NCBI GenBank assembly: GCA_025459125.1
Contig: JALORE010000095.1
Span: 1-35,681, forward strand
DNA from: Planctomycetota bacterium
Lineage (GTDB): Bacteria > Planctomycetota > Phycisphaerae > Sedimentisphaerales > Anaerobacaceae
Length of the DNA: 35,681 nt
Reading direction: 5' to 3'
The notes under the pieces are model-generated. The model saw only the letters and a list, made by a program, of their open reading frames with translations, ran no database searches and was not told the DNA's origin. The first letter of the stretch is position 1, and every line of letters starts with the position of its first letter. Positions 2,311 through 35,681 of this stretch are shown here, piece by piece. The translations under genes and the position numbers were made by a program.

Positions 2311-2362
2311 GGTCTCGACCACGCTAGAATCGTGCATGGAGAGCGCGACGAATCAGGTGGAT

Positions 2363-2445: not shown

Positions 2446-2466
2446 TCGGGCTGAAATGGTGAATTC

Positions 2467-2554
2467 CGGGTGGCATCGTCAAGCGTAGCCTGCGGAGCTT
2501 GGCGATGGTGAAGGGGTCCACCGTCGGCAAGCTGACGCTTGCCGCTGCCACCCG
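2467..2554. repeat. Intergenic palindromic element, copy 2
   Basis: Same terminal inverted repeat, CGGGTGGCA (2467-2475) and TGCCACCCG (2546-2554). The first 23 bases starting from GAATTCC (2461-2483) are identical to 9462-9484. The right arm is the perfect hairpin CGGCAAGC-TGAC-GCTTGCCG (2525-2544) shared with copy 1. Copies 1 and 2 together fill most of the 311-base gap between the heparinase and macrodomain genes, and nothing else is apparent there. Confidence 0.75.
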
Positions 2555-2621
2555 TGCGTATACGGAAGAAGGGCGTGCGTCGCAGATCCAACGATAGCGC
2601 CTATCATGGGAGGACGGAAAC

Positions 2622-3152: not shown

Positions 3153-3192
3153 CGGGGTGCCTGGCCCGAAAGACGTAATCCCGCAATTTGGA

Positions 3193-3220
3193 TTGACTTG
3201 GCGGTCTTATCGGGTACAAT
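3193..3220 (+). promoter_or_regulatory. Sigma70-type promoter for the ferritin-like gene
   Basis: TTGACT (3193-3198) and TACAAT (3215-3220) are separated by 16 bases; each box matches five of six consensus positions. The GTG start at 3263 is 43 bases downstream of the -10 box. This is the best-looking promoter in the window. Confidence 0.6.
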
Positions 3221-3262
3221 GAAGATGTGTGGTCCGGGTAGAGTCTGTCGAGAAGGCGCGTT

Positions 3263-5069: not shown

Positions 5070-5129
5070 CCTATGACGGCTGCGGGTGAGTCCTGAAAGT
5101 TGCTTCCGGGGCGAGGCTCGACCCCTTGT

Positions 5130-6566: not shown

Positions 6567-6598
6567 TCAGGATTCCGTCACCCCGCCGGGGGCGTTCC

Positions 6599-7558
6599 TC
6601 AACGACACCGGATCAGCCGATGCCGGTCGATCTCGATGTGGGGCAGACGCGTGCGCAGCTCCTCGACGAAGCGCGTGCCGTCCGTCCAATAGCCCGCGGT
6701 CGGTGCGAGATTCCCGTCCATGGCGGTGAAGTAATCGTTCTGGCACTCCATGAGCAGCTCGCGGAGGTACTTGCAGACCATGGACGCCAGCGCTACCGGC
6801 AGATACCGATCGTCGGCCTTGATCTCGAAACTCAGCCGGACCGTCCGCTCACTCGCTCGCAACTCGTAGTCGCTGGTTTCCGCCCCTTCCTGCACGATCC
6901 GCAGGTCCATGCCGGGAAAGCTGCGCAGCAGGTTCTCCCGGTAGTGCGCCCGCCCCCCCTGCCGGTCCACTTGAATCTGGATGTCATCACGTGGGAACCT
7001 CTCGAGAAGACCTTGTACCAGTTGGGTCACCGCAATGAACAGGACCTGGGCTTTGTTCTTCACGCGGCCGACCAGCGTGTTGTAATAGGCGACGTCCAGG
7101 CAGCCGCTCTGCAGGTGCACCAGCCTGGCCCCGTGGGCGGCGAGGTCCTCCGCGAACACCTGGGAGGCGATCTTCAGATCGGCCAGCCCACGTGCCAGTT
7201 CGCACTGCTGCATCTTCTGATACCACGGGTACTCCCGCAACCGCGGCAGACAATCCGGGCACAGCAGGGTCAGGCACTCCTCCAGGTTGGCCGGGTCTTT
7301 CCCTGCGCATTGCAGCACGGCCAGGACCGTGCGTTCGAGATGACCCAGACCCTCCGCGCGGTGGTACGCCTTCTTGCTGTCGGCGATCAGGAGCCGGCCG
7401 GCGAGGTGCTTGCGGGTCCTGCCCACACTGCGGCCCAGGGTCTCCCAGAGGTCGACTGGGGCGAGTTCCGGCCCCACTGAGAACGCGCTGCACGAGACGA
7501 TCAGCGGCCCGAGTAACGGCCCAAAGCCCGCCTCATCTATCCCAGCCAGAATCGCCAC
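6599..7558 (-). CDS. Divergent RNase HII-like protein
   Basis: A 319-aa protein with the core motifs of type 2 RNase H, which cuts RNA in RNA-DNA hybrids. It begins with GIDEAGFGPLLGP (6-18), has DSKK (60-63), VDRQGG (197-202) and KADDRYLPVALAS (248-260). These supply candidates for all four acidic catalytic residues: Asp8, Glu9, Asp198 and Asp249 or 250. Two features are unusual. The conserved GRG motif that reads the 2'-OH at an RNA-DNA junction is GFG (11-13). The protein is also about 100 aa longer than bacterial RNase HII, mostly through a helical-looking insert between the DSKK and third-aspartate motifs. The start is a GTG with AGAGG seven bases upstream. It heads the operon with the two permeases. 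It may act on another nucleic-acid substrate; no bacterial counterpart of this length is known to me by name. Confidence 0.7.
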   Translation of the reverse strand: MAILAGIDEAGFGPLLGPLIVSCSAFSVGPELAPVDLWETLGRSVGRTRKHLAGRLLIADSKKAYHRAEGLGHLERTVLAVLQCAGKDPANLEECLTLLCPDCLPRLREYPWYQKMQQCELARGLADLKIASQVFAEDLAAHGARLVHLQSGCLDVAYYNTLVGRVKNKAQVLFIAVTQLVQGLLERFPRDDIQIQVDRQGGRAHYRENLLRSFPGMDLRIVQEGAETSDYELRASERTVRLSFEIKADDRYLPVALASMVCKYLRELLMECQNDYFTAMDGNLAPTAGYWTDGTRFVEELRTRLPHIEIDRHRLIRCR

Positions 7559-13833: not shown

Positions 13834-15738
13834 TCAGTCGGGTAGATCGCCGGAGAATGTGGAGGCTTGTCGGGAACGGGAATCCCCATGCTGGTGCACG
13901 AGTCGGCGTCGGGCGAGTGCCCCGGCACAGAGGAGCAGGCAGAACACGGGATCGAGGCTGCTGCGGTTCAGGCGGCGGATCTGGGCCGTCGTGATCTTCA
14001 CTTCGCTCCACAACCCCTGATTATCCTGCACCCGAACCAGGAACGTGATCCGGCCACGAAGCCAATCGTCGGTGGCGCCCGTCCAGGTCCAGCCGTCCGA
14101 GCCGTCATGATCCACACCGAGCAGGATATCAATCCCAAGCTCGAGCGTACCATTACCGTTGGCGTCCCGGTAGAACAGCGCCAGCACAACCTGGCCGTCC
14201 GGATCGGTTACGCCGGTAGCGGTCAGGGTGACCTTGCTTCCCGACACGATGACGTTGGGACTGCAGGCAAACTGTTCCACGATCGGCGTGGCGGGCGCAT
14301 CGGTCACCAATACCTGCACCGTTGCCGTGTCGTCGACCTTGCCATCGCTGGCGGTGTACTCAAACCGGTCAGGTCCGGTGTATCCAGAATCGGGCGTATA
14401 CAGAACCTGACCGTCCGCGACTCTGGCCGTCCCATGCTGTGGCGCCACGGTGATCGTGACCGTCAAGCGATCGCCGTCGATGTCGAGATCGTTCGTCAGA
14501 ACGTCGATGACCCGCGCCGAACTCTGCGGCGCCATCGCGACGGCATCATCGCGCAGCCACGGACTATCATTCACTTCGACCATCATCACGATCATCGTGC
14601 TCAGGGCCGGTACGTAGCCGCGATTCTCCATCACTGGGAACCGGAAATCTCCACTCGAAAGAGGCCGGGTGGGCGGCGCGGACCAAGGAATGTCCTGCCA
14701 ACCCGACAGCGGCAGGCGAAGCAAGGCAACCACGGGACTGACGGTTCTAACTTCGCCTTCCGTGCTTCGGGATTCGCCCCACAGCCCCTGATCATCCTGG
14801 ACACGGGCCAAGAGCAGAATCCGGCCTTCCGGCCAGTCGGTCGTACTACCCGTCCAGTTCCAGCCATCCCCGGCGTCACTGTCCGTGCCCAGCAGAATAT
14901 CGACCTCGGGATCCAAGCGGCCGTCACCGTTGGCATCACGATAGAACGCCGCCTGCACCACCTGACCGTCCTCGTCCCTTGCCTCCAGGACAACAAGCGT
15001 CACATCGGCACCCCGGGCGACACTGGCCGGTTGGCACACGATCCCCGTCAGGACGGGCGCAGCATTGTCGGAAGCCGGGGCTGCTACCCTCACGCTGATC
15101 GTGTTGGAATCATGAGTTCCGTCCTCATCGGTGGCCGTGGCCGAGATCGCGTAGGTGGCAGGTCCGTTCGCGTAGGTGTGCGTTGCGGAGGCCGGATTCC
15201 CCAGGATGTCTTCGACGATGCCGTCTCCCCAGGTGATCCGCCACCGCGTAATGCCATCTTCCCCGGGATCGCTGGCAGACAGAGTCAGGGAATACACGGA
15301 TCCCGCCCCAATCTGAGCCGGGCCCTGGATGAGGAGCACCGGCGGGACATTAGCCACCCGCACCTCCCGCGCTGCCGCGTTGGCATGGGTACCGTCCTCG
15401 TCAATCAGATCGACCTGAACGGTATACGCCGCCGGACCATCCGCGTAGATGTGATGGGCTTCAGTGCCGACCGGATAATCCTCATTCACACCATCGCCCC
15501 AATGAACGGTATAGCGGACTACCGCGTCGTTGCCCGGGTCGCTGATCGGGCCCAATCCTACGGTATATGAGGCCCCCTCACCGGCCACGGACAGACCAGT
15601 GAGTACCGTGGTGGGCGCCACGTTGTTGACCGTCACCGTGAGACTGTCGCTCCCGGAATCTTCGGTACCGTTGGCCACGGTGACGGTCACGGTGTTCAAC
15701 GAATGTGCCGGCGCCCGCAAACACATCCCCTTCCGCAA
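13834..15738 (-). CDS. C-terminal part of the giant surface protein, out of frame
   Basis: Most likely the 3' end of the giant gene, separated from it by a frameshift. The first residues of this open frame (down to about 15,697) are out-of-frame text; the real sequence starts at NTVTVTVANGTEDSG. Then come two PKD-like modules (VHWGDGV, ITWGDGI) and an approximately 100-aa module at about 14,750-15,065. A cadherin-like Asn-Asp module (VLTNDLDIDGDRLTV) follows, then a second copy of the 100-aa module at about 13,975-14,290. Both copies carry FYRDANGxGxL with a calcium-loop look and end in VQDxQGLW. The C-terminus has DPVFCLLLCAGALARRR, a short hydrophobic stretch with an Arg cluster resembling bacterial C-terminal sorting or anchoring signals, plus a further 25 polar residues. 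It would not work as a separate secreted protein because there is no signal peptide. Confidence 0.8.
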   Translation of the reverse strand: MRKGMCLRAPAHSLNTVTVTVANGTEDSGSDSLTVTVNNVAPTTVLTGLSVAGEGASYTVGLGPISDPGNDAVVRYTVHWGDGVNEDYPVGTEAHHIYADGPAAYTVQVDLIDEDGTHANAAAREVRVANVPPVLLIQGPAQIGAGSVYSLTLSASDPGEDGITRWRITWGDGIVEDILGNPASATHTYANGPATYAISATATDEDGTHDSNTISVRVAAPASDNAAPVLTGIVCQPASVARGADVTLVVLEARDEDGQVVQAAFYRDANGDGRLDPEVDILLGTDSDAGDGWNWTGSTTDWPEGRILLLARVQDDQGLWGESRSTEGEVRTVSPVVALLRLPLSGWQDIPWSAPPTRPLSSGDFRFPVMENRGYVPALSTMIVMMVEVNDSPWLRDDAVAMAPQSSARVIDVLTNDLDIDGDRLTVTITVAPQHGTARVADGQVLYTPDSGYTGPDRFEYTASDGKVDDTATVQVLVTDAPATPIVEQFACSPNVIVSGSKVTLTATGVTDPDGQVVLALFYRDANGNGTLELGIDILLGVDHDGSDGWTWTGATDDWLRGRITFLVRVQDNQGLWSEVKITTAQIRRLNRSSLDPVFCLLLCAGALARRRLVHQHGDSRSRQASTFSGDLPD

Positions 15739-18700
15739 TCGTCACATCCTCACCGGCATGCACCGCGATTCCTTCGTCGGGCGCGGCCTGGATCCGCACT
15801 TCGGCGGTGGCCTCATCAGTCAGGCCGCCATTGTCGGTCACCCGCAAGGTGACCAGGCCGGTGTACTCGGCCGTCCACGTGTGCAGGACCACCGCGGCGG
15901 GCCCACTCGTCTCGAAGATTCCGTCCCCGTTCCAATCCCACTCGTGCAGGACCACCGAGCCGTCCACATCGTAGGAGGACGCAGCGCTGAACTGAAGCGG
16001 AACATCCACCCAGCCGGCGCCTGGCGCAACGACAACCGCGACCGGTGGATCGTTGACGGCGTTTACCGTGATGGTGACCGTGACCGTGAGCGAATCGGCG
16101 GCACCGTCGTGGGCCACGTAGGTAAAGCTGTCCACCCCGTGGAAGTTCGCCTCCGGCTCATATTGGAAAGAGCCGTTGTCGTGCAGGACCAGTGTGCCAT
16201 GTGCGACATCTGTCACCAGTCGCGCGGACAGGTTGTCGCCGTCGTCGTCGTGGTCATTGGCCAAGACCCCATCGGGGGCCCCAACGATCAGGGCAACGTC
16301 CTCGTCCGTTTCGTACAGATCATCCACCGCCACGGGCGGGTGATTCACCGCGTGAACGGCAACCTCGACTACGGCGGCATTCGATGGATTGCCCTGGTCG
16401 TCGCGCACCGTGTACTGGAACGTATCGCTCCCACTGAAGCCGGCGGCCGGGGTATAGGTGATCGCGCCCGTGACCGGATCGATGGCAAGACTGCCGTGCT
16501 CGGGCTCGACCGTGACGGCCACCGTCGTGGGATCGATCGCGCCATCGGGGTCGGCGTCGTTGGCGAGCACCGGGATCACCACCGGTGTGTCGATGGACGT
16601 ATTGGCGATGTCGGGGCTGGCGACCGGCGGCTCGGTCGTGGCGCCCACGAGGAACACGTGGTCGACCTGGACCAGGCTGTCGCGGGTGTCGGCGCCCAGG
16701 AGATCGAAGTACAGCCGCACTTCCGTGCCGGCGGCGACCTGGCTGAGGTCCACGGCGAAGGTGAGGGGCTCGGTCAGGGCGAGCGTCTCGCCGGACAGCG
16801 GCAAGCCGGGTGCGGATACCGCGTCGCTGTAGTAGACCCGGCCGTCGGCCTGCAGGTTGAGCAGCGCATCAGTCTCGCTCAGGCCGGCGGCTGTGCCCAC
16901 CAGCGAGAGCTGGGTGGCCGTGTCGAGCAGAGCCACCTCGAACGTCGCCGGGAAACTCGTGCCCACGCCGAGCTCGCTGCTGAGAATGGTGAAGCGCAAG
17001 GCCGTCACGCCGGCGGGCATCGTGAAGGTCTGGGCCAGCCGGGTGAGGAGCTGCGGGTCTTCGCGGAACTCGGCCTGGCCGGCCACGATGCCGACATTGC
17101 CCAGGATCTGCCAGCCGAAGGCCGGGTTGGCCGGGTCGGCGATGCTGAAACCGCCATTGATCAGGCTGACAGTCTGGTTCAGCTCCGTGGCCAGGCCGGC
17201 GTCCAGCGTGAGGACGACGTCGCCCGCGTTCACCGGTTGGCAGTCGGCGGCCGCGGTGGGCAGACGCCGCTGGCCGATGACCAGCGCCGCGCTCATGACC
17301 CCCACCGGGCGGGCCGTGGCGGACACGTCACGCAGGCCCAGCACATGGCCCAGTTCGTGGATCAGCACGGTGAGCAGATCGACGTGACTGCGGGCGGGGG
17401 TGTCACCCGGGCTCCCGGGGGCGAACTCCGCGTCCTCCAGCGGTGTGGGGTCGATGAACCAGCCGTAGCCGGCCGCATCCTGGTCGATCTTGAGGGAAAC
17501 CCCGTCGAACGCGCCGAGCTGGCCGCCGGGCAAATCGACCACTTCGGCTTGGATCGCGCGGAGGCGCAGCCGGTCGTTCGCGGTCAGGCCGGCCGCCTCC
17601 CACCGCAGGAGGGCCGAGCCCAAGAGCGAGTCGAGCACGCTGTCGGTCAGGGGCAGGACGACGCCCGGCATCGGGCCGCCGGCCGCGCTCAGCGGCGCAT
17701 TCACGTTGAGGGTGAAGCTGGCAGTGCCCGTCCCGCCGTCATCGTCGGTCACGATGATGGTGATCGTCCGCAGACCCGGCAATCCGTACGTGTGGATGCC
17801 GCCGAACGTGCCCTGGGTTTCGACGCCTTGGCTACCCGGCTGGGTGATGACCGGTGAGCCGTTGGACGGCGCGGACCCGTCGCCCCAGTTGATGCGGTAG
17901 GTCCAGGTTTCGCTGTTGCCCCATTCCGGATCGCTGAAGCCGAAGACGCTCAGCAGGTTCAACGCCTGGCCCACGCTGACGGTGGTCACCGGCAGGCCGG
18001 GAGTCGTGATCGTGGGGCTGGCGTTGAGCAGTACAAGGGTGTACTCCTGCACCGCCTCGCCACGCGTGTCAAAGAGGCTGGCGAGCGTGGTGGCGGCATT
18101 GTACTCGTCGTCGCGTACGGTCAGCTTGACCTTGTAGGTGTCGCGATCCGCGGGGGTCTTGGCGTCGTCGGCGTAGACGTGCCGGGCCGCCGGGATGGTG
18201 TAGCTGCCGTCGGGCTGCTTCACGGGGGTGAGAGTCTCAGCCGCCGTGCCGTCGCCCCAATCCACGGTGACGGTGAAGGTGTCCTTGGTGCCCGGATCGG
18301 TGAAGGTGGCGCCGCTGAGCTCCACCTCGCTCGTTCCGGCCAGGGCGCTGGCGTGGCTGAGCGTTCCGCCGCTGATGACCGGGTTCTGGTTCTTGACGGT
18401 GTAGGACGTGGTGGTCTTCTCGGCATGGGCGCCGGTGATCTCGACGGCAAGCTGAAAGTCGCCGCTGTCCTCAAGCACGTGGCTCGGCGTGTAGGTCCGC
18501 AGGCCCGACAGCAGATCGATCATGGTGGGCGCTGAGCCGTCGCCCCAATCGACTTTCACTTGGCCGGGGTTGGCATCATCCATCGGCCTGATCTGCAACC
18601 GGAGCTGGATCGTGTCACCTTCCTTGATGGCCGTGTAAGGCAGGCCGGACGTGGTTTCGAGCTTGACCTGGCGGATCTGGCCGGCGAAGCGGATGTTGTC

Positions 18701-21700
18701 GAGCAGATAGAGCTGGCTGATCGTGGCGGCCGGGTCATCCGGCAGGGGCAGCACGGGGAACGGGTTGATGAGGCTGGCAATAAGGCCCGTGTCAGCCATG
18801 GCGATGTGCTTGAGGGTCAAGGTGGCCATCTTGCCGCGTGCCGCTGCCGGCACCGGCACGCTGAAGGTGCGGCGCTCGAAGAACATGCTGCCGAAGATCA
18901 CGTCCTGGTCGATCACGGCGGTGCCGTCGACCTCGAGGGTGATATGGACGCCCGTGCCTGCGGTGGCGATGTACGGAGCGAAGATGTCGAAGCTGAGGAT
19001 CTCGGCGTCAGCCGGGATATACATCCGGTTGTGGCGGATGCTGTCGAAGTTGACCAGAGCATTGATCACGTCGTCGACCACGTCCTCGAGCGAATCGGGC
19101 ACGACGCCGTTGACGAAGTCCTTGAGCACCGCGCCCGCGCCCATGATCAGGGCATGATCGCTCTGGGCGCCGGGGAAGAACTTGGCGAAGAGGATGTCCT
19201 CGATCGCCTTGCTGATGTAGCCCTTGAGGGCGTCGATGCTGGTGGGCGTGCTGCCGCCGATCTCCAGCCACTGCCTCAAGGTGGTGGCGGTGGCGCCGCC
19301 GCCCAGCGGCAGGTCGCCCAAGACGCTCTTGAGGCTGGTTTCGTAGACGCTGTCCAGGAGATCGAACAGGCCATCCACCGCGGTGGCGCGCTCGGCATTC
19401 GGGGTGCCGTCGGCCCAGTTATCGTCGTGCCAGGTCTGGTAGGCGGCCTTGTCGGTGAACTTGCCGTGCAGGGAGCCGCCGGGCTGGAAGTCGGCGTCGG
19501 TGACATCGCCGGGGTCTTTCGGCTTGCCCGACACAGCGGCTTTCATGCGGTCGATGACCTTGTCGGCCGCGTACTCCCAGGCCTTGACCAGGAGCTGCTT
19601 GACCAAGGTGCCGATGTTGGTCTCGACCACGAACAGGCCAGCCACGTCGATCGGGTCCATGGAGAAGCCGATTGAGGGGATGCTGAAGCCGCCGACACTG
19701 AAGCCCTGCCCGCCGTGGAACGACCAGCCGGGCAGCTCGTAGGAGAGCGGGAAGCGGCCGGCGTCGCCGGGCAGCAGGCCGTCGAGAATGGCCTTGTGGT
19801 GCAGGATGGACTGCAACACGCCGTTCTCGAAGTTGCCGTTGAAGACGCTGGGCACCGCCGGGTCGCCGGTGTGCTTGACCACCTCGGTGTTGTCATTGGT
19901 GACCGGCTCGCGGTCCACGGTGCTGGCGGGACGGTAGGCCACGCCGCCGCCGGCGGCCGTGAAGTACCAGCCGTTGGCCACGCCTTCCCAGACGTCGTTG
20001 GCCCAGGAGGTGATCGACTGCAGGTACACGTGGCGCAGGGCGGCGTCCCCGGTAATGATCTGCGGGTCGGAGGAGTACCAGGCCTTGTCGGTGTAGGTCT
20101 GGTTGGGCGCCGGGATGCCCATGACTTCGACGGCGATGCCCTGATCGGTGACGCGACGGTAGATGGGCTCGCCGTTGAACTCCAGAGCATCCAGGGCGAC
20201 GGTGCCGGCATACCAGGTGGTGACGCGGCTGTGCGGACCGCCCACGCCGAAGTGCAGCGTGTCAATGTCGTCCTGCCGGAAGCCGGCGACGAAGTTGAGC
20301 AGGCGGTTGAGGTCGGCGCCCTGGAGCTCGCGCCCGTTCGGCGTGAAGGTCATGCCGGTGTTCATCAGCGCCGCGGTCTGGTAGTAGTTGTCCGCAAAGG
20401 CGATGTTGCTCCAGACCTTGACATCGGGGTCCTTGAAGTCGCCGTAAGGGATGGGGGAGATCGCGATACCCAGCTTCTCGGCGGTGGAGACGATGGAGCT
20501 TAAGCGGTTGGCCCACGCGCCCAGGGTGGCGGCGGCCGCGACGTTGCCGGTGGCGGTGGCGGCCACGGCCAGGGCGTAGAGGGCGTTGGAGACGGTCGTG
20601 AGCGCGCCGCCCAGCGGGACGTTGAGCGACTTCTGCTCCATGTCGTGCGGGTCGAGCGTCGTCATGTGGATATTGGTGACCGCCGGGAAGTAGGTCCCCA
20701 GCCGCTGGATGATCTCACTGTTGACCACGGTGCCGCGGCTATGGCCGACGAAGTGCAGCGGCGACTGGAAGATCTTGCCGCTTGTGTCCTGGTTCAGCTT
20801 GACCAGGGCGGCAAAGATCGCGTCGGCCGCGGCCTCGGAGAAGCCAGCGTCGCTGATGTCGGACTCCTTGTTCCAATCGGAGACCAGGACCACGGGCTTG
20901 CCCGCCTTCAGGGCGGCCGCGCCGAGGGCACCGGTGGTTCGGTCCTTCCACTGCCCGGTGTTCTTGTCGTAGGAGAGCACCACGCCGCCGCCGCCGGCGT
21001 CGGAGATGAGCCGCGCGAGCTCCAGGAACGCCGCGGGCTGCTGGAACGACGGGTTGCCGAAGAAGTCCAGCGGATTGAGCTGGAAGCCGTGCGTCAGGAT
21101 CGTCACGCCGTTGTACGGCGTGCCCGTGCTGACGGCCTCAGCCTTGAACGCGGTGGCCTCGCGGGCGCCCCCACCGCCGCCGTCAAGCTTGACGCCCCAG
21201 TAGTAGACCTGCCCGGCGGTCAGGTACTTTCGCCACGCCTCGGTGAAGCGGAGAATCGTTTGGTTGGTAGGGGCGACGCCGTCGTCGGTGATGGTGCCAA
21301 ACTCGTCGATCTTGTACGCCCGACCGGGCGCCCAGCCCAAGCCGGGGGCGGTGGTATAGATACGGTTGGGATTGCTGTCGGCGCCGGCCCACGAGCTGGT
21401 GGTGCTCGGCCAGGTACGCTCGCGCTGCGGATCCTCCGGCCACAGGCCATTGCCGGCGCCCAGGCCGCTCAGATAGAAGTAGGACTTGTAGGGCGCGCCG
21501 CCGAGCATGGAGGCATCCACTTCCCACTTGAACTCGAGCACGCCTGTGCCACCGTGCACGTTGATCGTGCCCTGCGGCGTGATCAGCGTGAGCGGGTCGT
21601 TGGGTTGTACCGACAGGCCACGGTCCAGCTCCGCAATATTGATGGGCTCGAGGTTGATGTTGATGCCCGTGATGGCCTCGACCTGCGGGTGATCCACCGG

Positions 21701-30700: not shown

Positions 30701-33700
30701 CCCGCCGCTCACCAGCACGCTGCCGTCGGCGAGCTCCACCAGGGCCATCGGCCCGATGTGGCCGTGGCTCTGCCCGATGCCGGTGGCGAACGCCTGGGCC
30801 ACGAACGGGCGGAACACAATGTCGAACTCGCTCGGCCGGGTCAGCGGCTTCTGGCTGGGCACGTTCTGCCACTGCGTGAACAGCGGGTTGGTCGAGGGCT
30901 CCGGCACCGGCTCGGGGGCCTGCCCGAAGTTGGGCGGAGTGGTCCCGGTCACCGTCGGCAGCGCGCCCAGGTTCACGCCCGAGCCGTCGTCGGTCGCATT
31001 CACGCCGAAACGCGGCTTCTCCCGGTTGCCGGCAATATCGGTCGCCAGGGCCAGGAACTCGTAGGTATGGCCGGCCTCGCCCTCGAACACTGCCGAGCCG
31101 GCGGCCTCGGTGACCTGGCGCTGCCAAATCTTGAAGTCGCCGCCGTCGGTGGCGACGTACAGCGTCACGTGCTTCACGCCCGAGCCGCTGTCATCGACGA
31201 CGCTCCAGTCCACGCGGAAGCTGTTGCTCTCCGCGGCCAAACGCGTGGCGGTCACGTGCGAGGTCGGGGCCGCGCCGTCGACCACCTGCGTGAGAGTGAT
31301 GGTGTCCTCGGGCGCCAGCCCGTCGCTGAGCACCCGGGCCTGCGCCGTGATCTCGGTGCCGCTGACCAGATCGTCCTTGGCCTGGATGGTGTAGCCCACG
31401 AACATCTCGCCGTGGCCCTGCCCGTCATTGGGCGCCAGCAACCCGCGGGTCGGATCTTGCAGCACTTCGCCCGTGAGCGGGTCGATCGCCTGCAGCACCC
31501 AGGTGGCGGTGTTGGAGTAGAGATCCACGCCCGCGCTGACGCGCAGGATGAAGCCGCGGACCTGGCTGAAGTCGAAGTCGCCCTGGAACGTGCTGCGCCC
31601 CTGCGGGATGTGCACGGTGATGTCGCCGATCTTCAGGTCGCCGAGTTTGAACGTGCGGCCGTCGAGATCGGCATCCAGTTTGGTGACCACCTGGATGTCG
31701 TTGAGGTAGCGCGACGACTCGGACGGGTTCTGGAAGTTGATCGCATAGGGCAGATCCTGAAGGACCGGCAACCAGCCGGCGGTGTCCCAGGTCTGCGGCC
31801 CGGTGATCGAAGCCAGCCGGTCCAGGCCGCCCTGGGCCTCGAACAACTCGTCGAAGTTCAGGCTCTGGAACTCGCTGCCGTCCACCGGCACGGGGCCGTT
31901 GATCTGGAAGTCGGCCGGGAGCCCGGCCCCGCGGCGGTCGAAGCCCAGCCACGGCACGTAGATATGGAAGGCCTCGAAGTGGGTCGGCATGGACAGGCCC
32001 AGGTCGTAGTCTTCGAACGGCGGGAGCGCCGGGACGGGGATCTCGCCCTGGCGGTGCCTGCACGACCGCTCCTCGTAGCCCACGGCGGCCATCGTGCCTT
32101 CCTCATGGCCGTACCACGCACGGACCTGGTCGAAGAAGGCCACCAGGTCGCTGGTGGAGCGCACCTCGCTGCCCGCAGGCCCGAAGAGGATGCCCGAGCT
32201 GAGCACCGCCATCAGGCTCACGATGTGCTGTTGGGTGCGGATCGGCGGCAGGGCGCCGTCGGGACGCAGAATTCCTGCCTCTTCCAGGGCGGCCAGGTAC
32301 AGGTCTACCCAGGTGTCGGCGTCGGCCACCAGGGCCACCAAGGATGCGGCCGCGGTCGTGTCGGCGAGGATGTCGTCGCGGAGATCCAGCGCCTCCTGGC
32401 GCTGATGGGCGACGAACTCAGCGCGGGTCATGGTGGTCGCCGCGGCGTAGATGTGGAAGCGGAACGGGATGAACGGAATCTCGCACTCGCCCGGCACCGC
32501 CACGTTCTCCTGGTACATGCCCACGAAGTCGAGCTGATCCAGGGCTGCGCCCAGACCCGGGCTGATCTCCGACACCTTCTCCTTCACCGCGTCCCACCAC
32601 GTGCCCAAGGCATCGGGACCGTCCTCGAGAATGTAGTCGAGGTCGGGGAAGTTGCCGCTGACCTGCGCGCGGAAGTCGTCGAACGCCCGGTCAGCCATGG
32701 CCCGCAGGCCAGGATAGGTGACAATGTTGAAGCTGAAGCCGCCGAAACCGTCGGCCACCAGGTCGAAGATGTACCCCGAAGTGTCGAGCTGCCCGGTGGT
32801 GTTGGTGATCGATTCGATGCTCGCCCAGGGCACGTCGGCATTGGCCGTGCCGGCCGCGCCTTCCGGCGTGCCGCGCACGTTGGTGAAGAACTGCAGGAAC
32901 GGCAAGCCGTACACGTACTGGTTCAGCAGCAGCTCCGGCACGCCCACCTGGAAGAAGGTATAGGGCGCGTCCAGGTTGCTGATGTTCTGCAGGGCGATCG
33001 AATAGGTCGCCTGGTCGCCCGCCGGGATGACCCGGGCCCCGCCGATGCCGATGGTGACCTCCGGCTCGATGGCCCGCTCCACCAGGAAGCGGTACGGCAC
33101 TACCGCGGTGTCGCCGCTGGGGTTGATCACCTTCAGGTCGTACAGGCCGTGCGGCGCGCCCGTGAAGTCGAAGGCGGCGATGATCAGACTGCTGTCCACC
33201 ACGTCCCAGGTCACCGGCTCGAACTCGGCGATGCCCGGGCGCACCAGCTTGATGATGGCCCGATCGCTGAACTGCGCGCCTTCGATGCGCACGGTCACGT
33301 GCTTGCTGTCGCCGCCGGTATCGGTGTCCACGTCGGTGATCACCAGGGGCAGCAGCTCGGCTAGGACGGTCACGTCGCCGCCCGCGGCCGGTCCGCTGAA
33401 GCCGCGCACCAGCACGTAGTAGCGCCCGGGCTGGGTGCCCGCCACGATGGCTGTGACGTCCGCCGCCACCGGACCTTCATAGCCCGCGTCGTAAGCCGCG
33501 CTGCTGGGCGCCGCGTGATAACGCACGAAGATCTCGTTGGCCGCGTTGGCGTTCTGCCCGTCGACGGTGAAACGCAGCGTCCGGTCGTTGGGCACGGTGA
33601 TCTGGTACAGTTTCTCCTGCCCGGGCTTCAGGTGCAGCGTCACCGGGGCGCCCAGCACCAGTTCGTCCACGGTGACGTTGAACGTCCCGCCCGATGAGGT

Positions 33701-35680
33701 GGTGTTGTTGGCGTCCTGCACGTCCTCGAACACTTGGTTGAAGATGTCGGTGCGCACGATCAGGTGGTAATCGCCGGGAACCGTCGCGGGCAGGAGGATG
33801 TCCAGCGTCAGCGTGTACGTGCCGCCGGCCGCCACCGTGCCGGAGAAGGTACCCCGGCCCAGCGGTTTGTCGCCGATGTCCCAGGCCGCGTCGCTCGACA
33901 GGTACACGGAGTCGGACCAGGAGCCCGCCGCCGCCTCGGTGGCCGCCAGGTTCTCCACCGTCCACTCCACGTGGATCGGCTCGCCCGAGCGTCGCGGTCC
34001 CGGGAGCACGATATCGGTTACCTGCAGGTCCGACGGTGGCGGATTTTCGATCAGGATCGGCCCGGCCATCCGGGTGTTGTTCCGCTCGTTCTCGCCTTCG
34101 AACACCGCGGCGCGGTCGCTGCTGCCGCGCGCCGGGTCGGTAACCACGAACACGTACCACACGCCGAGCATGTCGGCCGGGGCGGTGAGCGTCGGGTTCT
34201 GGTCATAGAAGCTGTTGGCCGCCATCCCCCCCTCGTGGCTGAAGCCACCGATATAGCGGTCAGCCCGCGTGTCCAAAAGCTGGTCGCGCGACAGGTAGAT
34301 CTGGTCGGACCACGCGCCCTGCAGCGGTGCGGTGGCGCCCGCGGAGACGTTGCTCACGCGGTAGCTACAACTGAACGGGCGCCCGCGCGTCGCCCGCTCG
34401 GGGACGGTCAGATCGGTCACCTGCAGGTCCGGCGGCGTGGCCGCCACGATGGTGGCCGCCCGCGCGGTGGTGTTGTTGCCCTCGCCCTGGAATTCCTGCA
34501 CGTCGCCGGTCCCCGAGCCGCTCACCCCCGGCAGGCCGGGGGCCACGCTGCTGGCATAATAGCCACTGCGCCTCACCTCCAGGTCCGTTGCGCCAATGAA
34601 GTGGAACGGACCCTCGATCCCGTAGGGGATCGTCACCGTAAACGTGACGTTGTAGGCCTCACCGAGTTTCAGACGCCCGGAGTGCCGCACCTCGGCGTCG
34701 AGCATCTTCAGCGGGTCGCGCTCGTCGCGCAGCAGGTAGTCGGAGTTATCCAGCGACGGGTCGCGAGAGAGGTACAGCCGGTCCCACCAGCTCTGCTCGC
34801 GGGTCTCCCGGGTGCCGACGTTGGTGACCGTGTAGGTCACCGCGATGGTCTGCCCGGAGACAATCGTCGCCGGGAGTTGAATGGTGGTCACCTGCAGGTC
34901 CGGCTCGTGGTAGATCACCGGCAGCGTGCCCCGTCCCAGGTTGTTGGTCGGGTCTTCGTAGGCGTGCCGCGTGAAGAAGTCGATCGCGCCCCGGTTACTG
35001 CCGCGGTCGTAAGGCCACGCGTAGTCCAACGGATTTTCCGGATTGTGGGCGTTGGCAAAGACGTAAACGTAGTACTGTCCCTCGATCCCCTTGGGCAGCA
35101 CCGCCTCGAAGCTCGCCGTGTACTGCCCGCCCGCGGGCAGCGTGGTCAGGTTGCTGTGCTGCGCCGTGCCCAGGAAGGTGGCACGGCTCTGGATGAAGGT
35201 CGGGTCCTTGGAGAACCAGATCGCGTCGGTCCAGTACTGAGTCCCGCTCCACAGCGCCAGCCCGGATACATTCGTCACCGTGTAGCGGATGGTCGTGCGC
35301 TCGCCGGAATACGCCACCGCCGCCGGCGTCACTACGCTCACCTGGACGTCCGGCACGCTGCCGGTCACGGTGGTGGCGGCCGAGAGCTGGTTGTTGGTCA
35401 GGTCGGCGTCGCCCAGAGTCGACTGGACGATCACGTACAGGCCACGGGCCGCGGGGCTGAGCGTGAAGGTCTGGATGTTGGCGTACGTCTCGCCCGGCCG
35501 CAGGGCCTTGACGTTGGGGAAGTCGCCCAGCAGCCACTCGTGCGCGCCGGGCGCGTTGCGGACGGGCTGGTCCGACAAGTAGACCAGGTCCGACCACGCC
35601 TCGCGCGTCTCGCCTTTCTTGCTCTTGTTCTCCACCGTCCAAGACACGGTGAAGCTCTCCCCCGCGACGCCCACGAGCTG
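15578..35680 (-). CDS. Giant multidomain surface/secreted protein, N-terminus outside window
   Basis: Open to the right edge (5' partial). About 6,660 codons are in good frame before the frame breaks near 15,697; the last 40 codons down to 15,578 are out-of-frame text. Module order from the N-side: five CARDB modules (35,680-33,670); PPC-like and IPT-like modules; a unique region (33,080-30,900); an NHL-like propeller (30,770-30,030) and a Big_5-like module; nine putative-Ig/cadherin-like modules (29,330-26,740); an RHS/YD-like part; a second PPC-like module and a dockerin-like module. Then follow BIG2, ZU5-like, a hydrophobic hairpin, IPT, a YVTN-like propeller, an alpha/beta-hydrolase, a mostly uncharacterised region, three PKD modules, a matrixin-like protease and cadherin/PKD modules. 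This is the architecture of planctomycete giant extracellular proteins, presumed to work in adhesion, polymer capture or cell-surface structure. The export signal must lie outside the window. Confidence 0.88.
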   Translation of the reverse strand, partial: QLVGVAGESFTVSWTVENKSKKGETREAWSDLVYLSDQPVRNAPGAHEWLLGDFPNVKALRPGETYANIQTFTLSPAARGLYVIVQSTLGDADLTNNQLSAATTVTGSVPDVQVSVVTPAAVAYSGERTTIRYTVTNVSGLALWSGTQYWTDAIWFSKDPTFIQSRATFLGTAQHSNLTTLPAGGQYTASFEAVLPKGIEGQYYVYVFANAHNPENPLDYAWPYDRGSNRGAIDFFTRHAYEDPTNNLGRGTLPVIYHEPDLQVTTIQLPATIVSGQTIAVTYTVTNVGTRETREQSWWDRLYLSRDPSLDNSDYLLRDERDPLKMLDAEVRHSGRLKLGEAYNVTFTVTIPYGIEGPFHFIGATDLEVRRSGYYASSVAPGLPGVSGSGTGDVQEFQGEGNNTTARAATIVAATPPDLQVTDLTVPERATRGRPFSCSYRVSNVSAGATAPLQGAWSDQIYLSRDQLLDTRADRYIGGFSHEGGMAANSFYDQNPTLTAPADMLGVWYVFVVTDPARGSSDRAAVFEGENERNNTRMAGPILIENPPPSDLQVTDIVLPGPRRSGEPIHVEWTVENLAATEAAAGSWSDSVYLSSDAAWDIGDKPLGRGTFSGTVAAGGTYTLTLDILLPATVPGDYHLIVRTDIFNQVFEDVQDANNTTSSGGTFNVTVDELVLGAPVTLHLKPGQEKLYQITVPNDRTLRFTVDGQNANAANEIFVRYHAAPSSAAYDAGYEGPVAADVTAIVAGTQPGRYYVLVRGFSGPAAGGDVTVLAELLPLVITDVDTDTGGDSKHVTVRIEGAQFSDRAIIKLVRPGIAEFEPVTWDVVDSSLIIAAFDFTGAPHGLYDLKVINPSGDTAVVPYRFLVERAIEPEVTIGIGGARVIPAGDQATYSIALQNISNLDAPYTFFQVGVPELLLNQYVYGLPFLQFFTNVRGTPEGAAGTANADVPWASIESITNTTGQLDTSGYIFDLVADGFGGFSFNIVTYPGLRAMADRAFDDFRAQVSGNFPDLDYILEDGPDALGTWWDAVKEKVSEISPGLGAALDQLDFVGMYQENVAVPGECEIPFIPFRFHIYAAATTMTRAEFVAHQRQEALDLRDDILADTTAAASLVALVADADTWVDLYLAALEEAGILRPDGALPPIRTQQHIVSLMAVLSSGILFGPAGSEVRSTSDLVAFFDQVRAWYGHEEGTMAAVGYEERSCRHRQGEIPVPALPPFEDYDLGLSMPTHFEAFHIYVPWLGFDRRGAGLPADFQINGPVPVDGSEFQSLNFDELFEAQGGLDRLASITGPQTWDTAGWLPVLQDLPYAINFQNPSESSRYLNDIQVVTKLDADLDGRTFKLGDLKIGDITVHIPQGRSTFQGDFDFSQVRGFILRVSAGVDLYSNTATWVLQAIDPLTGEVLQDPTRGLLAPNDGQGHGEMFVGYTIQAKDDLVSGTEITAQARVLSDGLAPEDTITLTQVVDGAAPTSHVTATRLAAESNSFRVDWSVVDDSGSGVKHVTLYVATDGGDFKIWQRQVTEAAGSAVFEGEAGHTYEFLALATDIAGNREKPRFGVNATDDGSGVNLGALPTVTGTTPPNFGQAPEPVPEPSTNPLFTQWQNVPSQKPLTRPSEFDIVFRPFVAQAFATGIGQSHGHIGPMALVELADGSVLVSGGSNRGVIYKFGKDGGTAGTPWAQLDHPVFNLALDADGRLWATTGGGPLLQLDADSGAVVNSFGDGITMGLAVDPVTGVLYVGSNAGVQKFDPATGTFEQFSRDLNLRVGSLAFDQTGTLWAVTWPDRRQVVRFTARARVEVMLSFDTDIDSIAFGQNGSALDELLFVSHNSGAVSSTGAVSTASELTMVDLATLQRVAIARNGTRGDVVLTTRDGRILLSQSTQVDVIQPAVLPGVTAVNPPNQAVLPLPLPFVAVTFNQDMLVGDAALPGSVLNPGYYRLTGAVAGDMVVRSVVYDVPTRTAYLTFDGLLPDTYALTVRAGVASVLGPTAADDYQTTFTAVDDLTPYVDIHFDTARSDRNAGTISYDVTLRNKTDANLVLPVLLLLDPAAGYAGVPTSAGGQTADGKWLIDLSTNLPGSLLAPGATTTGRTVTIDNPGQQRIQFTPGVAAGAGENQAPVFSTEAPTAAAVGQLYQYDAHATDPDANAIVFHLFSGPEGMTVDMVTGLVQWTPTALDPARTLVVLQVFDSRGAVTLQRFVLNVTGGNHAPTLSGVAANLESPEGTKIEFRVLGADLDDDGLYFWADRLPAGAAFDPATQTFTWTPGYNAAGTYNDIRFVVSDGIVQTTTTLNLVVTEGRPPLVLLDPADATLREGDRLRFYLHATSADPANLAFSSPLLPYRATLHPTMGLFDWQPTFTQARVYEIPFTATDGVETVTVTVKFTVTNANAAPQFLPQQGWQVYEGQVLSLLGFALDPDNPNYMPPQRDAEGDLVTDGYPATVTFSVQDLPAGATFDADTTELRWQPTYNQAGTYYVTFIATDDGDGTGIPLTSTMIVPIEVVNLNQRPVFETLGDVTVPANSVRLVTIRATDPEGGAISFSATSESTGFPLPSFMTLTDNHDGTATLRIAPVNGQRGDYGVVISATDTGDGDSPALTTDTTFVVTVDSPNEAPQWRFVGDVVAVAGQSFTMTVRADDPDQEPLTFALAGLPAGATLTPGATYGTALLAWTPAAGDLGGYDVTFTVTDGGNGGAAAALSDTTTMRLVVKETNAAPVLGPVGNRSVAETQTLTLNLTATDADGDTLHFVMANLPRGASFDPATGVFTWTPALDQAGSYDASFTVSDGLAGSSETIRLAVTNTNQAPMWVQAIEQFAREGVQLDFTVVAGDRDGDQLVYSVVSGLPQGAVFVPRTGLFLWTPGYEQAGEYVVRFVVVDAGGLKDEMDVTLRVANVNRAPVLATGSHTVLLGRPSSFTLQGGDPDAGTVLTFRGLDLPAGASVDPNTGVFSWTPGPGQAGEYLVTFEASDGEATTQKVIVLRATATPAPPDVLIELTPSFPALPGQRVLVHAIAGSLGDIVTLTLTADGQLVELDADGRAYFTPTQPGKVDLVATATDVDGLVGTRHVQLKVRDPQDRLAPVVGFAETVARAMLTTPMALTGTVADTNLDYWRLEIAGSAAGPFTELARGETSVDGVLLAEFDPSQRANGFYTLRLTAADISGRVSQTTTLVEVNTAAKPAAHTRIETDLNVDLAGVTLSLRRLYNSLDQSLSGLLGAGWAMLNREVRLATDLPATGREGLGIYAAFRDGTRVYLTLPSGERAGFEFRPVAVIVGGRMLYRAAWTGTGAAGYTLQSADALLTRAGARYYEFGTGQAYNPASSVYADADYILTGPDGTRYLIDSTRGIFEEQRSGGKRLYYSDSGVVSNGGASVQFLRDAAGRLTSVTAPGGVTITYQYDVQGRLVAVRNLGAGTGSRYGYAAAAAGPALLTSAVATGGAGDAIVYPGDASAPQVRPIRADLGGVSQFTGQARAGTLTAGGLDLYTFSLRGTEIASTNAERVIMRVAVRAGADLSFVPTAPAIAGLTPLSVQITGGSVVALFALEQEGLYQLAVGAGIGGAYTLAVGVAGDVNASGRVDGVDSTLLAGGDSLYDIDGDAVVNDTDVQILIANYGFVRNGGPELLAQSQPLLTHVDLRTTLALNTLASDPDGDAVFFRIIGATHGTAALSADGMSLVFMPDAGYTGPATVQVVADDGFNSSPTGQVQINVSSAPLLSLDFQRRRLLLEAGATGTIVVLGQFADQADVVLPLDYVTAQILDPTIATISASGVVTAKQNGTTTLVVRRGNLQAATAIGVGLPGDSRGLVLHVFGIDAYPNAVTLAPGGQRQIVVSLGSTQEMFIQAAAAGTRYYVGDSSVVSVTADGLIQAAGEGTTTITVICGDAEETITVQVEPAAVGPVVVDAAGAIVQGPQGYQVSIGPGQLTEDATVSVVPIAESNLTVPVPPAFNYAGAFSLEVDGANLNGPVQIAAPVDPSIAAPGDQVWFLRQVQLPDENGVLHEYWASIDIGVVDAGGVARTTSPPFPGLSQRGNVLIARAAQPLGTIRLNAEFYKGLMWASIGALGVVAMFGASGGLLGASVGLGIAGAMLAMALLPMAYQAADIAVWRAYGRNAVGAVMTVNPPPGIGSTIVSLTAIVPEAPAPGVAPAITAAGAVVMPDGTVRTTIRGSDFFLPGDGQTLADTRVVFTMNDRRVIVPGTAYASAAGTQADSTIVLQVPATILLGMAKISVERPITSYGAGGGAATTDWMASQQVQVKNENGFAFIGKVVTTANDGPGVEVIDINRAKVPQGGTPGAGETEQVVARIPLPGAIPFDTVATTDLSAVYVATNKGIAVIDATTLQQFDVDATTPALDYIWVPDSNGVNALAIDPDANYLYAAGTDAVWVVDLHPGSANFHKVDLTASLTPLGTPNGYISDLAVDADGRKLYIAAPATRMFGGTNAWTRGGRDHGRIFVYNVDEADRPEAGAANTRKWRKQIGVLDGGLEPFRITATTEAKELAFTARMDINRGFHTIKVTNDDPLSYAATVGGVSLDLVDAMATYQLDIRTASGVVVTPDRQWAFVGDWYLSLVVGSSSSMWAVEYEETHEVGSKIGIIHKPFESSAELYTVTTPIPMAFLEDLALSSDGQKLYANYRNAGNLVVFDVAKFQQAAQAMKSGSGQSERFRRPVDHPQVEAITGININLEPINIAELDRGLSVQPNDPLTLITPQGTINVHGGTGVLEFKWEVDASMLGGAPYKSYFYLSGLGAGNGLWPEDPQRERTWPSTTSSWAGADSNPNRIYTTAPGLGWAPGRAYKIDEFGTITDDGVAPTNQTILRFTEAWRKYLTAGQVYYWGVKLDGGGGGAREATAFKAEAVSTGTPYNGVTILTHGFQLNPLDFFGNPSFQQPAAFLELARLISDAGGGGVVLSYDKNTGQWKDRTTGALGAAALKAGKPVVLVSDWNKESDISDAGFSEAAADAIFAALVKLNQDTSGKIFQSPLHFVGHSRGTVVNSEIIQRLGTYFPAVTNIHMTTLDPHDMEQKSLNVPLGGALTTVSNALYALAVAATATGNVAAAATLGAWANRLSSIVSTAEKLGIAISPIPYGDFKDPDVKVWSNIAFADNYYQTAALMNTGMTFTPNGRELQGADLNRLLNFVAGFRQDDIDTLHFGVGGPHSRVTTWYAGTVALDALEFNGEPIYRRVTDQGIAVEVMGIPAPNQTYTDKAWYSSDPQIITGDAALRHVYLQSITSWANDVWEGVANGWYFTAAGGGVAYRPASTVDREPVTNDNTEVVKHTGDPAVPSVFNGNFENGVLQSILHHKAILDGLLPGDAGRFPLSYELPGWSFHGGQGFSVGGFSIPSIGFSMDPIDVAGLFVVETNIGTLVKQLLVKAWEYAADKVIDRMKAAVSGKPKDPGDVTDADFQPGGSLHGKFTDKAAYQTWHDDNWADGTPNAERATAVDGLFDLLDSVYETSLKSVLGDLPLGGGATATTLRQWLEIGGSTPTSIDALKGYISKAIEDILFAKFFPGAQSDHALIMGAGAVLKDFVNGVVPDSLEDVVDDVINALVNFDSIRHNRMYIPADAEILSFDIFAPYIATAGTGVHITLEVDGTAVIDQDVIFGSMFFERRTFSVPVPAAARGKMATLTLKHIAMADTGLIASLINPFPVLPLPDDPAATISQLYLLDNIRFAGQIRQVKLETTSGLPYTAIKEGDTIQLRLQIRPMDDANPGQVKVDWGDGSAPTMIDLLSGLRTYTPSHVLEDSGDFQLAVEITGAHAEKTTTSYTVKNQNPVISGGTLSHASALAGTSEVELSGATFTDPGTKDTFTVTVDWGDGTAAETLTPVKQPDGSYTIPAARHVYADDAKTPADRDTYKVKLTVRDDEYNAATTLASLFDTRGEAVQEYTLVLLNASPTITTPGLPVTTVSVGQALNLLSVFGFSDPEWGNSETWTYRINWGDGSAPSNGSPVITQPGSQGVETQGTFGGIHTYGLPGLRTITIIVTDDDGGTGTASFTLNVNAPLSAAGGPMPGVVLPLTDSVLDSLLGSALLRWEAAGLTANDRLRLRAIQAEVVDLPGGQLGAFDGVSLKIDQDAAGYGWFIDPTPLEDAEFAPGSPGDTPARSHVDLLTVLIHELGHVLGLRDVSATARPVGVMSAALVIGQRRLPTAAADCQPVNAGDVVLTLDAGLATELNQTVSLINGGFSIADPANPAFGWQILGNVGIVAGQAEFREDPQLLTRLAQTFTMPAGVTALRFTILSSELGVGTSFPATFEVALLDTATQLSLVGTAAGLSETDALLNLQADGRVYYSDAVSAPGLPLSGETLALTEPLTFAVDLSQVAAGTEVRLYFDLLGADTRDSLVQVDHVFLVGATTEPPVASPDIANTSIDTPVVIPVLANDADPDGAIDPTTVAVTVEPEHGSLAIDPVTGAITYTPAAGFSGSDTFQYTVRDDQGNPSNAAVVEVAVHAVNHPPVAVDDLYETDEDVALIVGAPDGVLANDHDDDGDNLSARLVTDVAHGTLVLHDNGSFQYEPEANFHGVDSFTYVAHDGAADSLTVTVTITVNAVNDPPVAVVVAPGAGWVDVPLQFSAASSYDVDGSVVLHEWDWNGDGIFETSGPAAVVLHTWTAEYTGLVTLRVTDNGGLTDEATAEVRIQAAPDEGIAVHAGEDVTIAEGDVFAGAGTFVEHRDRHRGQRYRRFRERQSHGDGQQRGAHHGTHWSVRGR
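17250..17650 (-). other. Domain: matrixin-like metalloprotease
   Basis: HELGHVLGLRD (17,327-17,359) is a metzincin zinc motif with Asp as third ligand. VGVM (Met codon at 17,294-17,296) provides the Met-turn. The preceding LPGGQLG and GWFIDPTP segments are usual for the short matrixin-like modules of planctomycete giant proteins. Confidence 0.78.
20200..21115 (-). other. Domain: alpha/beta-hydrolase (lipase/esterase-like)
   Basis: An oxyanion-loop motif LTHGF (about 21,083-21,097) is followed by the nucleophile elbow FVGHSRG (GHSRG at 20,732-20,746). An acid candidate lies in LDPHD (20,642-20,656) and the catalytic His candidate in GPHSRV (20,222-20,239). Order and spacing fit an alpha/beta-hydrolase with a Ser-Asp-His triad. 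Confidence 0.75.
23385..23545 (-). other. Hydrophobic hairpin inside the giant protein
   Basis: About 50 residues rich in Gly, Ala, Leu, Met and Val (WASIGALGVVAMFGASGGLL, then VGLGIAGAMLAMALLPMAY). It could form two closely spaced membrane helices or a Gly-zipper hairpin, with extracellular-type modules on both sides. Confidence 0.6.
24859..24991 (-). other. Domain: dockerin-like calcium-binding pair
   Basis: GDVNASGRVDGVDSTLL and DIDGDAVVNDTDVQILIANYG form two DxDxDGxV(N/D)xxD calcium loops in tandem, the dockerin type I layout. Here it sits in the middle of the protein rather than at its C-terminus. Confidence 0.78.
25430..26160 (-). other. Domain block: RHS/YD-repeat-like segment
   Basis: The segment opens with RIETDLNVDLAGVTLSLRRLYNS and LGAGWAMLN, the usual start of RHS-family wall-associated proteins (DUF6531-like). 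It continues to YD-like text (RDAAGRLTSVTAPGGVTITY, YDVQGRLVAVRN). Only a few YD units are present and no RHS core PxxxxDPxGL box follows, so it is not a complete toxin cage. Confidence 0.72.
26740..29340 (-). other. Domain block: nine putative-Ig/cadherin-like modules
   Basis: Nine modules of roughly 90-110 aa, usually starting N-x-AP or RP and carrying DxDxD-type calcium positions, GLPAGAxFDPxTGxFxWTP and a final strand before the next N-AP. This matches He_PIG/cadherin-like repeats. DNA identity between modules looks low, so they are old rather than recent duplicates. Confidence 0.82.
33670..35680 (-). other. Domain block: five CARDB modules
   Basis: Five successive modules, mostly opening with the PDLQVT or PSDLQVT type of phrase, followed by YTVTNV/WTVEN, a W-D/S-x-YLS segment (SDLVYLS, TDAIWFS, WDRLYLS, SDQIYLS, SDSVYLS) and an ending NN(Q/T)-type strand. 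This is the typical CARDB immunoglobulin-like adhesion module. The first is cut by the window edge. Confidence 0.85.
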
Positions 35681-35681
35681 C

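What the first reader, a model, noticed from the sequence alone, without database searches (positions are those of the whole stretch)
13834..35681. Giant gene of more than 21.8 kb combining two enzymes with an adhesion scaffold
At least 7,280 codons encode two beta-propellers, around twenty immunoglobulin-like modules, a dockerin-like module, RHS text, an alpha/beta-hydrolase and a metalloprotease in one polypeptide. A single secreted chain carrying both an esterase/lipase-type and a matrixin-type active site suggests either polymer degradation at the cell surface or self-processing of the giant after export. I know of no named system with this order.
Basis: partly seen in the sequence, partly recalled or inferred. 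Interest (0 to 1): 0.68.

Follow-up and report, generated by a model that had tools for sequence, protein, structure and literature searches.

The report
Widespread giant surface protein carrying two enzymes
The window holds most of one giant bacterial protein, built as a long Ig-type stalk carrying a lipase-like and a metalloprotease-like module; close relatives of 12,000-13,000 amino acids occur in several bacterial phyla, usually next to a known secretion gene cluster whose cargo has not been identified.

Summary
Minus strand 35680-15698 is one open frame (6,661 codons) cut off at its 5' end by the contig end. A frame break at ~15,698 separates the last ~620 codons, so '7,280 codons in one polypeptide' is not shown. 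The lipase-type alpha/beta hydrolase is real (AlphaFold pLDDT 91; Z 14.6; Ser/Asp/His triad intact). The matrixin-like fold is real (pLDDT 87; Z 10.5 to MMP-11), but its third zinc ligand is Asp. 'RHS text' is a one-repeat stub. It is not a one-off: the same order aligns over >=2,500 aa with giant frames at 56 of 80 loci from Pseudomonadota, Planctomycetota, Cyanobacteriota and others. Five named genomes have frames of 12.4-13.2 kaa with an LEPR-XLL N-terminus. In 25 genomes the M50-HlyD gene of a known orphan locus (GAF-HlyD, M50-HlyD, secondary SecA; Kamneva 2015) lies 9.3-12.2 kb past the hydrolase. The window's own genome has that locus beside another LEPR-XLL start. A paralogue swaps the hydrolase for an RHS cage. 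Hydrolase nucleophile and protease ligand are repeatedly lost in relatives. Best reading: an exported adhesive scaffold with optional enzyme modules; obligate self-processing is unlikely.

The parts
15698..35680 (-). In-frame part of the giant gene (6,661 codons; 5' end cut off by the contig end)
   Evidence: colinear with other giants
13834..15697 (-). Continuation in a different frame: PKD repeats, cadherin-like repeat, C-terminus
   Evidence: frame break in a PKD-type repeat
33650..35680 (-). CARDB-type Ig array
   Evidence: PF07705 E 2.9e-20; coordinates
33344..33652 (-). Bacterial pre-peptidase C-terminal (PPC) domain
   Evidence: PF04151 E 4e-6
30005..30790 (-). Probable beta-propeller 1
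   Evidence: Reg_prop E 5e-4, SGL E 0.03 (weak); colinear in relatives
26735..29332 (-). He_PIG/Big_9 Ig-type stalk
   Evidence: PF05345 E 3e-54, PF17963 E 2e-38
25415..26161 (-). RHS stub (DUF6531-like start plus one YD repeat), not an RHS cage
   Evidence: PF20148 E 0.001, PF05593 E 7e-11
24854..24991 (-). Dockerin-like EF-hand doublet
   Evidence: PF00404 E 0.005, below cut-off; motif by eye
24017..24814 (-). Big_9 and two Big_2 Ig domains
   Evidence: PF17963, PF02368
21752..22918 (-). Probable beta-propeller 2
   Evidence: Lactonase E 0.002 (weak); conserved in paralogue
20150..21130 (-). Lipase-type alpha/beta hydrolase; Ser codon 20740, Asp 20653, His 20233
18677..19852 (-). Region after the hydrolase starting GNFE..PGW..HGG, with an insert; this start also follows the hydrolase in G113:C89, G113:C170 and G063
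17690..18667 (-). PKD-type repeats
   Evidence: PF18911
17243..17668 (-). Matrixin-like domain; HELGHVLGLRD at 17359-17327, Met-turn VMS
15698..16636 (-). Big_9/cadherin-like and PKD tail up to the frame break

Best explanation
The window carries the greater part of a >12,000-aa-class exported giant of a Planctomycetota (Phycisphaerae-related) bacterium. Shown: a conserved ~4,500-aa stalk (CARDB, propeller, Ig repeats, RHS stub, dockerin-like, Big_2, propeller) carries a lipase-fold hydrolase with an intact triad, PKD repeats and an MMP-fold zinc site, and this order is conserved across phyla. Inferred: the chain leaves the cell by the secondary-SecA/M50-HlyD/GAF-HlyD locus (probably with a TolC pore), entering by its LEPR-XLL N-terminus. 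It stays on or near the surface as a long adhesive filament, binds polymers or other cells through its lectin-like and Ig modules, and the hydrolase cleaves ester bonds (lipid, polyester or acylated polysaccharide) while the metzincin cuts protein at the contact site. The stalk is the core function; the enzymes are exchangeable and dispensable modules.
For: Folds: hydrolase pLDDT 90.9, Z 14.6 to phospholipase A1 and 14.5 to lipoprotein lipase; metzincin pLDDT 87, Z 10.5 to MMP-11, 9.6 to snapalysin. Conserved order: window aa ~1,520-5,990 plus 6,016-6,650 chain colinearly at 36-46% identity with giants of Sphingobium, Novosphingobium, Rhodobacteraceae, Comamonadaceae, Anabaena and others. Full length: frames of 12.4-13.2 kaa in five named genomes. 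Complete relative of the same family: 12,200 aa with LEPR-XLL, Laminin_G and C-type lectin near its N-terminus. Export: M50-HlyD in 45 of 51 genomes searched, 9.3-12.2 kb past the hydrolase in 25; trio identified by Pfam; own genome has the trio on C413 near an LEPR-XLL start. Modularity: own-genome paralogue C420 shares aa 96-4103 at 38% identity and the matrixin region, but has an RHS cage in place of the hydrolase.
Against: No activity, export or surface location has been measured. The window's own N-terminus and neighbours are off the contig. The frame break at 15698 may mean this copy is damaged. Ser is lost in 13 of 54 aligned hydrolases and the third zinc ligand is neither His nor Asp in 6 of 30 cassettes, so catalysis is not essential to the family. 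In other Planctomycetota the protease cassette sits at the extreme C-terminus of many large proteins, which suggests a general C-terminal role. M50-HlyD was not found in four of the cyanobacterial carriers.
Confidence: 0.58

Rival explanations
1. Self-processing: the metzincin-like domain cuts the giant after export and releases the hydrolase or the stalk.
For: The same cassette ends many large planctomycete proteins, up to 14 copies per genome, often after dockerin-like repeats, which suggests a shared maturation role rather than digestion. It lies C-terminal to the hydrolase in every case found.
Against: The cassette is absent from 15 of 36 relatives with enough downstream frame and its third ligand is lost in several, so it cannot be an obligate step of the family.
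Confidence: 0.13
2. Exchangeable effector: the segment between propeller 2 and the metzincin is a swapped payload, as in polymorphic toxins, and the hydrolase attacks membranes of neighbouring cells.
For: Paralogues share flanks but differ in this segment: hydrolase in the window and G113:C89, a divergent hydrolase in G113:C170, RHS cage plus a HEIGH-containing region in C420 and G040. The structural neighbours include phospholipase A1.
Against: The segment is internal, not C-terminal; no immunity gene was recognised (not searched systematically); the hydrolase is conserved in place across phyla and is 60% identical between the window and G113:C89, against 46% for the long aligned block, the opposite of a fast-swapped toxin.
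Confidence: 0.15
3. The enzyme-like modules mainly bind (pseudoenzymes), and the giant is purely an adhesin.
For: Nucleophile Ser replaced by Gly/Asn/Glu/Asp in 13 of 54 homologues with at least 8 changes on the tree; zinc ligand lost in some cassettes.
Against: The window keeps Ser/Asp/His and HExxH..D plus Met; 41 of 54 homologues keep the Ser.
Confidence: 0.1
4. The gene is a chimera or decayed: the frame break marks a pseudogene, or the contig joins unrelated pieces.
For: A frame break with ~40 codons missing in a PKD repeat at ~15698. A similar lesion (aa 474-529 of the query unmatched, frame change) in the SecA-like gene of the same bin points to assembly error or decay in this genome.
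Against: 6,661 codons without a stop, colinear with independent genomes, rule out a chimera over 35680-15698.
Confidence: 0.04

Closest known systems
LEPR-XLL domain-containing giant proteins (NCBIfam NF012209, 'LEPR-8K')
   Same: Colinear relatives, including a complete 12,200-aa protein of the same family and a Sphingobium member, carry the motif at the N-terminus.
   Different: The family is defined only by a 24-residue motif; the hydrolase-metzincin order is not part of it, and the window's own N-terminus is off the contig.
Secondary SecA_DEAD locus with type I secretion-like proteins (Kamneva et al. 2015, PMC4452313)
   Same: Same gene set (GAF-HlyD, M50-HlyD, SecA_DEAD), same phyla; present in the window's genome.
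   Different: That paper calls the broader role completely unknown; the words giant, adhesin, exported and secreted do not occur in its main text. Here the locus is tied by position to LEPR-XLL giants.
Planctomycetal giant genes (Fuerstia marisgermanicae and others, PMC5177795; huge proteins, PMC11573180)
   Same: Giant exported-type genes with Big_9, cadherin-like and dockerin modules, common in the phylum.
   Different: In the passages read, those surveys do not describe this architecture, its two enzyme folds or its spread across phyla.
SiiE-type giant Ig adhesins of type I secretion (PMC5466336)
   Same: Long Ig-repeat stalk, dedicated exporter.
   Different: No lipase or metzincin modules are described in the abstract seen; exporter there is a classical type I system, here a SecA-type ATPase.
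Velamenicoccus giant proteins of Omnitrophota (PMC10066038)
   Same: Giant proteins proposed to act on target cells.
   Different: Those have many transmembrane helices and few recognisable domains; no homology was tested here.

Membership tests
LEPR-XLL giant proteins (NF012209) | LEPR-XLL motif at the N-terminus | not testable with these tools
   Window gene is cut off by the contig end. Met in colinear relatives and in a different contig of the own genome
Lipase-type alpha/beta hydrolase | Fold | tested here: met
   Z 14.6, rmsd 4.0 over 196 residues to 4qnn
Lipase-type alpha/beta hydrolase | Catalytic triad (GxSxG Ser, Asp after the next strand, His) | tested here: met
   GHSRG, LDPHD, GPHSR; Asp and His near-invariant in 54 homologues
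Lipase-type alpha/beta hydrolase | Match to a named Pfam hydrolase family | tested here: inconclusive
   No hit for the window; scattered weak hits (Abhydrolase_6, DUF900, Lipase) among homologues
Matrixin (peptidase M10A) | Metzincin/MMP fold | tested here: met
   Z 10.5, rmsd 3.4 over 116 residues to MMP-11
Matrixin (peptidase M10A) | HExxHxxGxxH zinc site with third His | tested here: not met
   HELGHVLGLRD: Asp at the third position, also in the four family relatives checked; His in 8 of 30 cassettes
Matrixin (peptidase M10A) | Pfam PF00413 gathering score | tested here: not met
   21.8 bits against 24
RHS polymorphic toxin | YD-repeat cage with C-terminal toxin | tested here: not met
   One YD repeat only in the window; a cage is present in paralogue C420
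Dockerin/cellulosome | Duplicated EF-hand dockerin above cut-off | tested here: inconclusive
   PF00404 17.5 bits against 22.9
Dockerin/cellulosome | Cohesin partner | not tested
   No cohesin search was made
Secondary SecA/M50-HlyD/GAF-HlyD export locus | Trio next to the giant | tested here: inconclusive
   M50-HlyD lies downstream of the giant in 25 relatives; for the window's own gene the upstream side is off the contig and no trio lies on the window; the trio is on contig C413 of the same genome

The most novel reading that the evidence does not exclude
LEPR-XLL giants are the cargo of the orphan secondary-SecA/M50-HlyD/GAF-HlyD(/TolC) locus: a Sec-type ATPase coupled to type I-like adaptors forms a dedicated exporter for 1.3-megadalton surface proteins, shared across phyla, with LEPR-XLL as its N-terminal address.
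Probability: 0.5. Interest if true: 0.82.

Novelty: new variant of a known kind. Interest (0 to 1): 0.6.

Why it matters
A supposed curiosity of one draft contig turns out to be a ~12,500-aa protein whose order of modules is kept across several phyla, so it does something worth its cost. It also gives a concrete candidate cargo for a secretion locus described in 2015 with its broader role called unknown, and cultured carriers (Sphingobium, Sphingopyxis, Salipiger) in which that can be tested by gene deletion and proteomics.

Tried and rejected
Chimera: rejected over 35680-15698 by colinearity. Hydrolase as a common planctomycete domain: rejected, 3 of 246 sampled Planctomycetota genomes against 18 for the metzincin cassette; in the 99 near genomes only the window's own and one other had it. 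RHS toxin reading of the window protein: rejected, only a stub. PDB sequence search with the hydrolase profile gave only Arc-repressor chance matches. Rfam: nothing in the window. An 80-bp DNA match between the gene's 3' end and contig C495 fell in an intergenic stretch there and led nowhere. My query was the antisense strand of the M50-HlyD gene by mistake; the ten strong hits were re-checked with sense-strand queries and all carried M50-HlyD, with SecA-like in nine. The co-occurrence figure (8 of those 10 genomes also have LEPR-XLL; Fisher p 3e-9) rests on that flawed first pass and on related genomes, so it is indicative only. The literature search found no paper on this architecture; only open-licence PMC papers were searched.
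Full report
CHECK OF THE OBSERVATION. On the minus strand one frame runs from the contig end at 35680 to a stop at 15578. The window is the complete contig G000:C237, so the 5' end of the gene is missing. The translation is coherent up to aa 6661 (window 15698) and then turns into nonsense; the same kind of Ig text resumes in another frame as ORF 15738-13834. The break falls in a PKD-type repeat; against the PKD repeat of the own-genome paralogue about 40 codons are missing and the frame shifts. A similar lesion sits in the SecA-like gene of the same genome bin, where aa 474-529 of the query are unmatched and the frame changes. I read both as probable assembly errors, not proven. The claim of one >7,280-codon polypeptide is therefore not supported as written, but a 6,661-codon one is.

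DOMAINS. Pfam supports CARDB, PPC, He_PIG, Big_9, cadherin-like, Big_2 and PKD repeats, DUF6531 plus a single RHS repeat, and gives weak hits for propellers, dockerin and matrixin. The hydrolase has no Pfam hit. With 54 aligned sequences its model reaches pLDDT 90.9 and matches lipase-type hydrolases, best Z 14.6 (rmsd 4.0 over 196 residues) to phospholipase A1 and 14.5 to lipoprotein lipase. The acid follows the strand after the nucleophile strand in an LDPxD motif; from general knowledge this is the arrangement of the pancreatic-lipase family. Ser, Asp and His are all present in the window. The metzincin model (pLDDT 87.3) matches MMP-11 (Z 10.5), karilysin (10.1) and snapalysin (9.6). Its third ligand is Asp; by general knowledge snapalysin also uses Asp there.

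FAMILY. The same genome holds a paralogue (contig C420, open frame 11,515 aa) that shares window aa 96-4103 at 38% identity, propeller 2 and the metzincin region, but carries an RHS cage and a HEIGH-containing region where the window has the hydrolase. A genome of the same family, Phycisphaerae bacterium BS750m-G58, has a 12,200-aa frame with LEPR-XLL, Laminin_G and C-type lectin near its N-terminus and the same hydrolase; contig length (65,116 bp) ties G113:C89 to JADHXR010000017.1. A scan of genome contigs found 138 hydrolase loci, 80 kept. Of these, 56 chain colinearly with the window giant over at least 2,500 aa. Of 36 aligned loci with at least 2,000 aa of open frame after the hydrolase, 21 have the metzincin cassette in the same frame. 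Eight genomes searched whole have frames of 10.2-13.2 kaa; five were read in full, 12.4-13.2 kaa, all with an EPR.LL-type N-terminal motif.

ENZYME STATE. The nucleophile Ser is replaced in 13 of 54 aligned sequences, needing at least 8 changes on a quick tree. Of 30 metzincin cassettes 16 have Asp, 8 His and 6 another residue at the third ligand. In other Planctomycetota the cassette is the last module of many large proteins, up to 14 copies per genome, often after dockerin-like repeats. So the enzymes are useful but dispensable; obligate self-processing is unlikely.

EXPORT. Just downstream of the giant in Sphingobium AS12, Salipiger abyssi and Sphingopyxis granuli lie a GAF-HlyD and an M50-HlyD gene, with a SecA_DEAD gene next in the first two; TolC and a further HlyD gene follow in Sphingobium. 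In 51 genomes that hold these giants or their scaffold, 45 have the M50-HlyD gene; in 25 it lies 9.3-12.2 kb past the hydrolase. Contig identity there is inferred from matching coordinates. The window's own genome has the trio on C413, about 10 kb from an LEPR-XLL start cut off by the contig end; it has six LEPR-XLL matches in all. The trio in the same order occurs in several other Planctomycetota. This locus was described by Kamneva et al. (PMC4452313), who call its broader role completely unknown; 'giant', 'adhesin', 'exported' and 'secreted' are absent from that text. That the giants are its cargo is my inference from position and co-occurrence.

MECHANISM AND NOVELTY. Best reading: an exported, surface-held adhesive scaffold with optional lipase-type and metzincin-type modules that act on polymers or cells held by the stalk (0.58). 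Kind: a new variant of LEPR-XLL giants. What would be new if true is the link between such giants and the orphan SecA locus (0.5).

LIMITS. No wet data. Propellers and the GNFE region were not modelled. The window's N-terminus and neighbours are unknown. The query was antisense by mistake and was re-checked.

Noticed in passing
G000:C420:6526-41070 (L011, L012, L039): Paralogous 11,515-aa open frame with an RHS cage and a HEIGH-containing region in place of the hydrolase, followed by the same metzincin cassette with one extra residue in the zinc motif (HELGHLLFGLPD).
   Followed up: partly
G000:C413:13027-18874 and 26784 (L155, L156): GAF-HlyD, M50-HlyD and a SecA-like gene near an LEPR-XLL start cut off by the contig end; the SecA-like gene has a frame break with query aa 474-529 unmatched.
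   Followed up: yes
L047, L054, L055, L065, L074, L075, L083, L089, L092, L094, L095, L116, L118: Hydrolase homologues in giants with the nucleophile Ser replaced (mostly GHGRG) while the rest of the motif is mostly kept.
   Followed up: yes
L122-L130 (planctomycete genomes G195, G215, G324, G380): The metzincin cassette is the C-terminal module of many large proteins, often after dockerin-like EF-hand repeats.
   Followed up: partly
G113:C89 (L026:11473-14085): Segment after the hydrolase contains GRCSAWAQLFHEVL, which looks transglutaminase-like by eye; Pfam gave no hit.
   Followed up: partly
G394:C33:247596-272906 (L146, L147, L157): A second giant frame of 8,437 aa directly downstream of the hydrolase giant in a Comamonadaceae genome, before the M50-HlyD gene.
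   Followed up: no
window 3693-6566: Two adjacent AI-2E family transporter genes on the minus strand.
   Followed up: no
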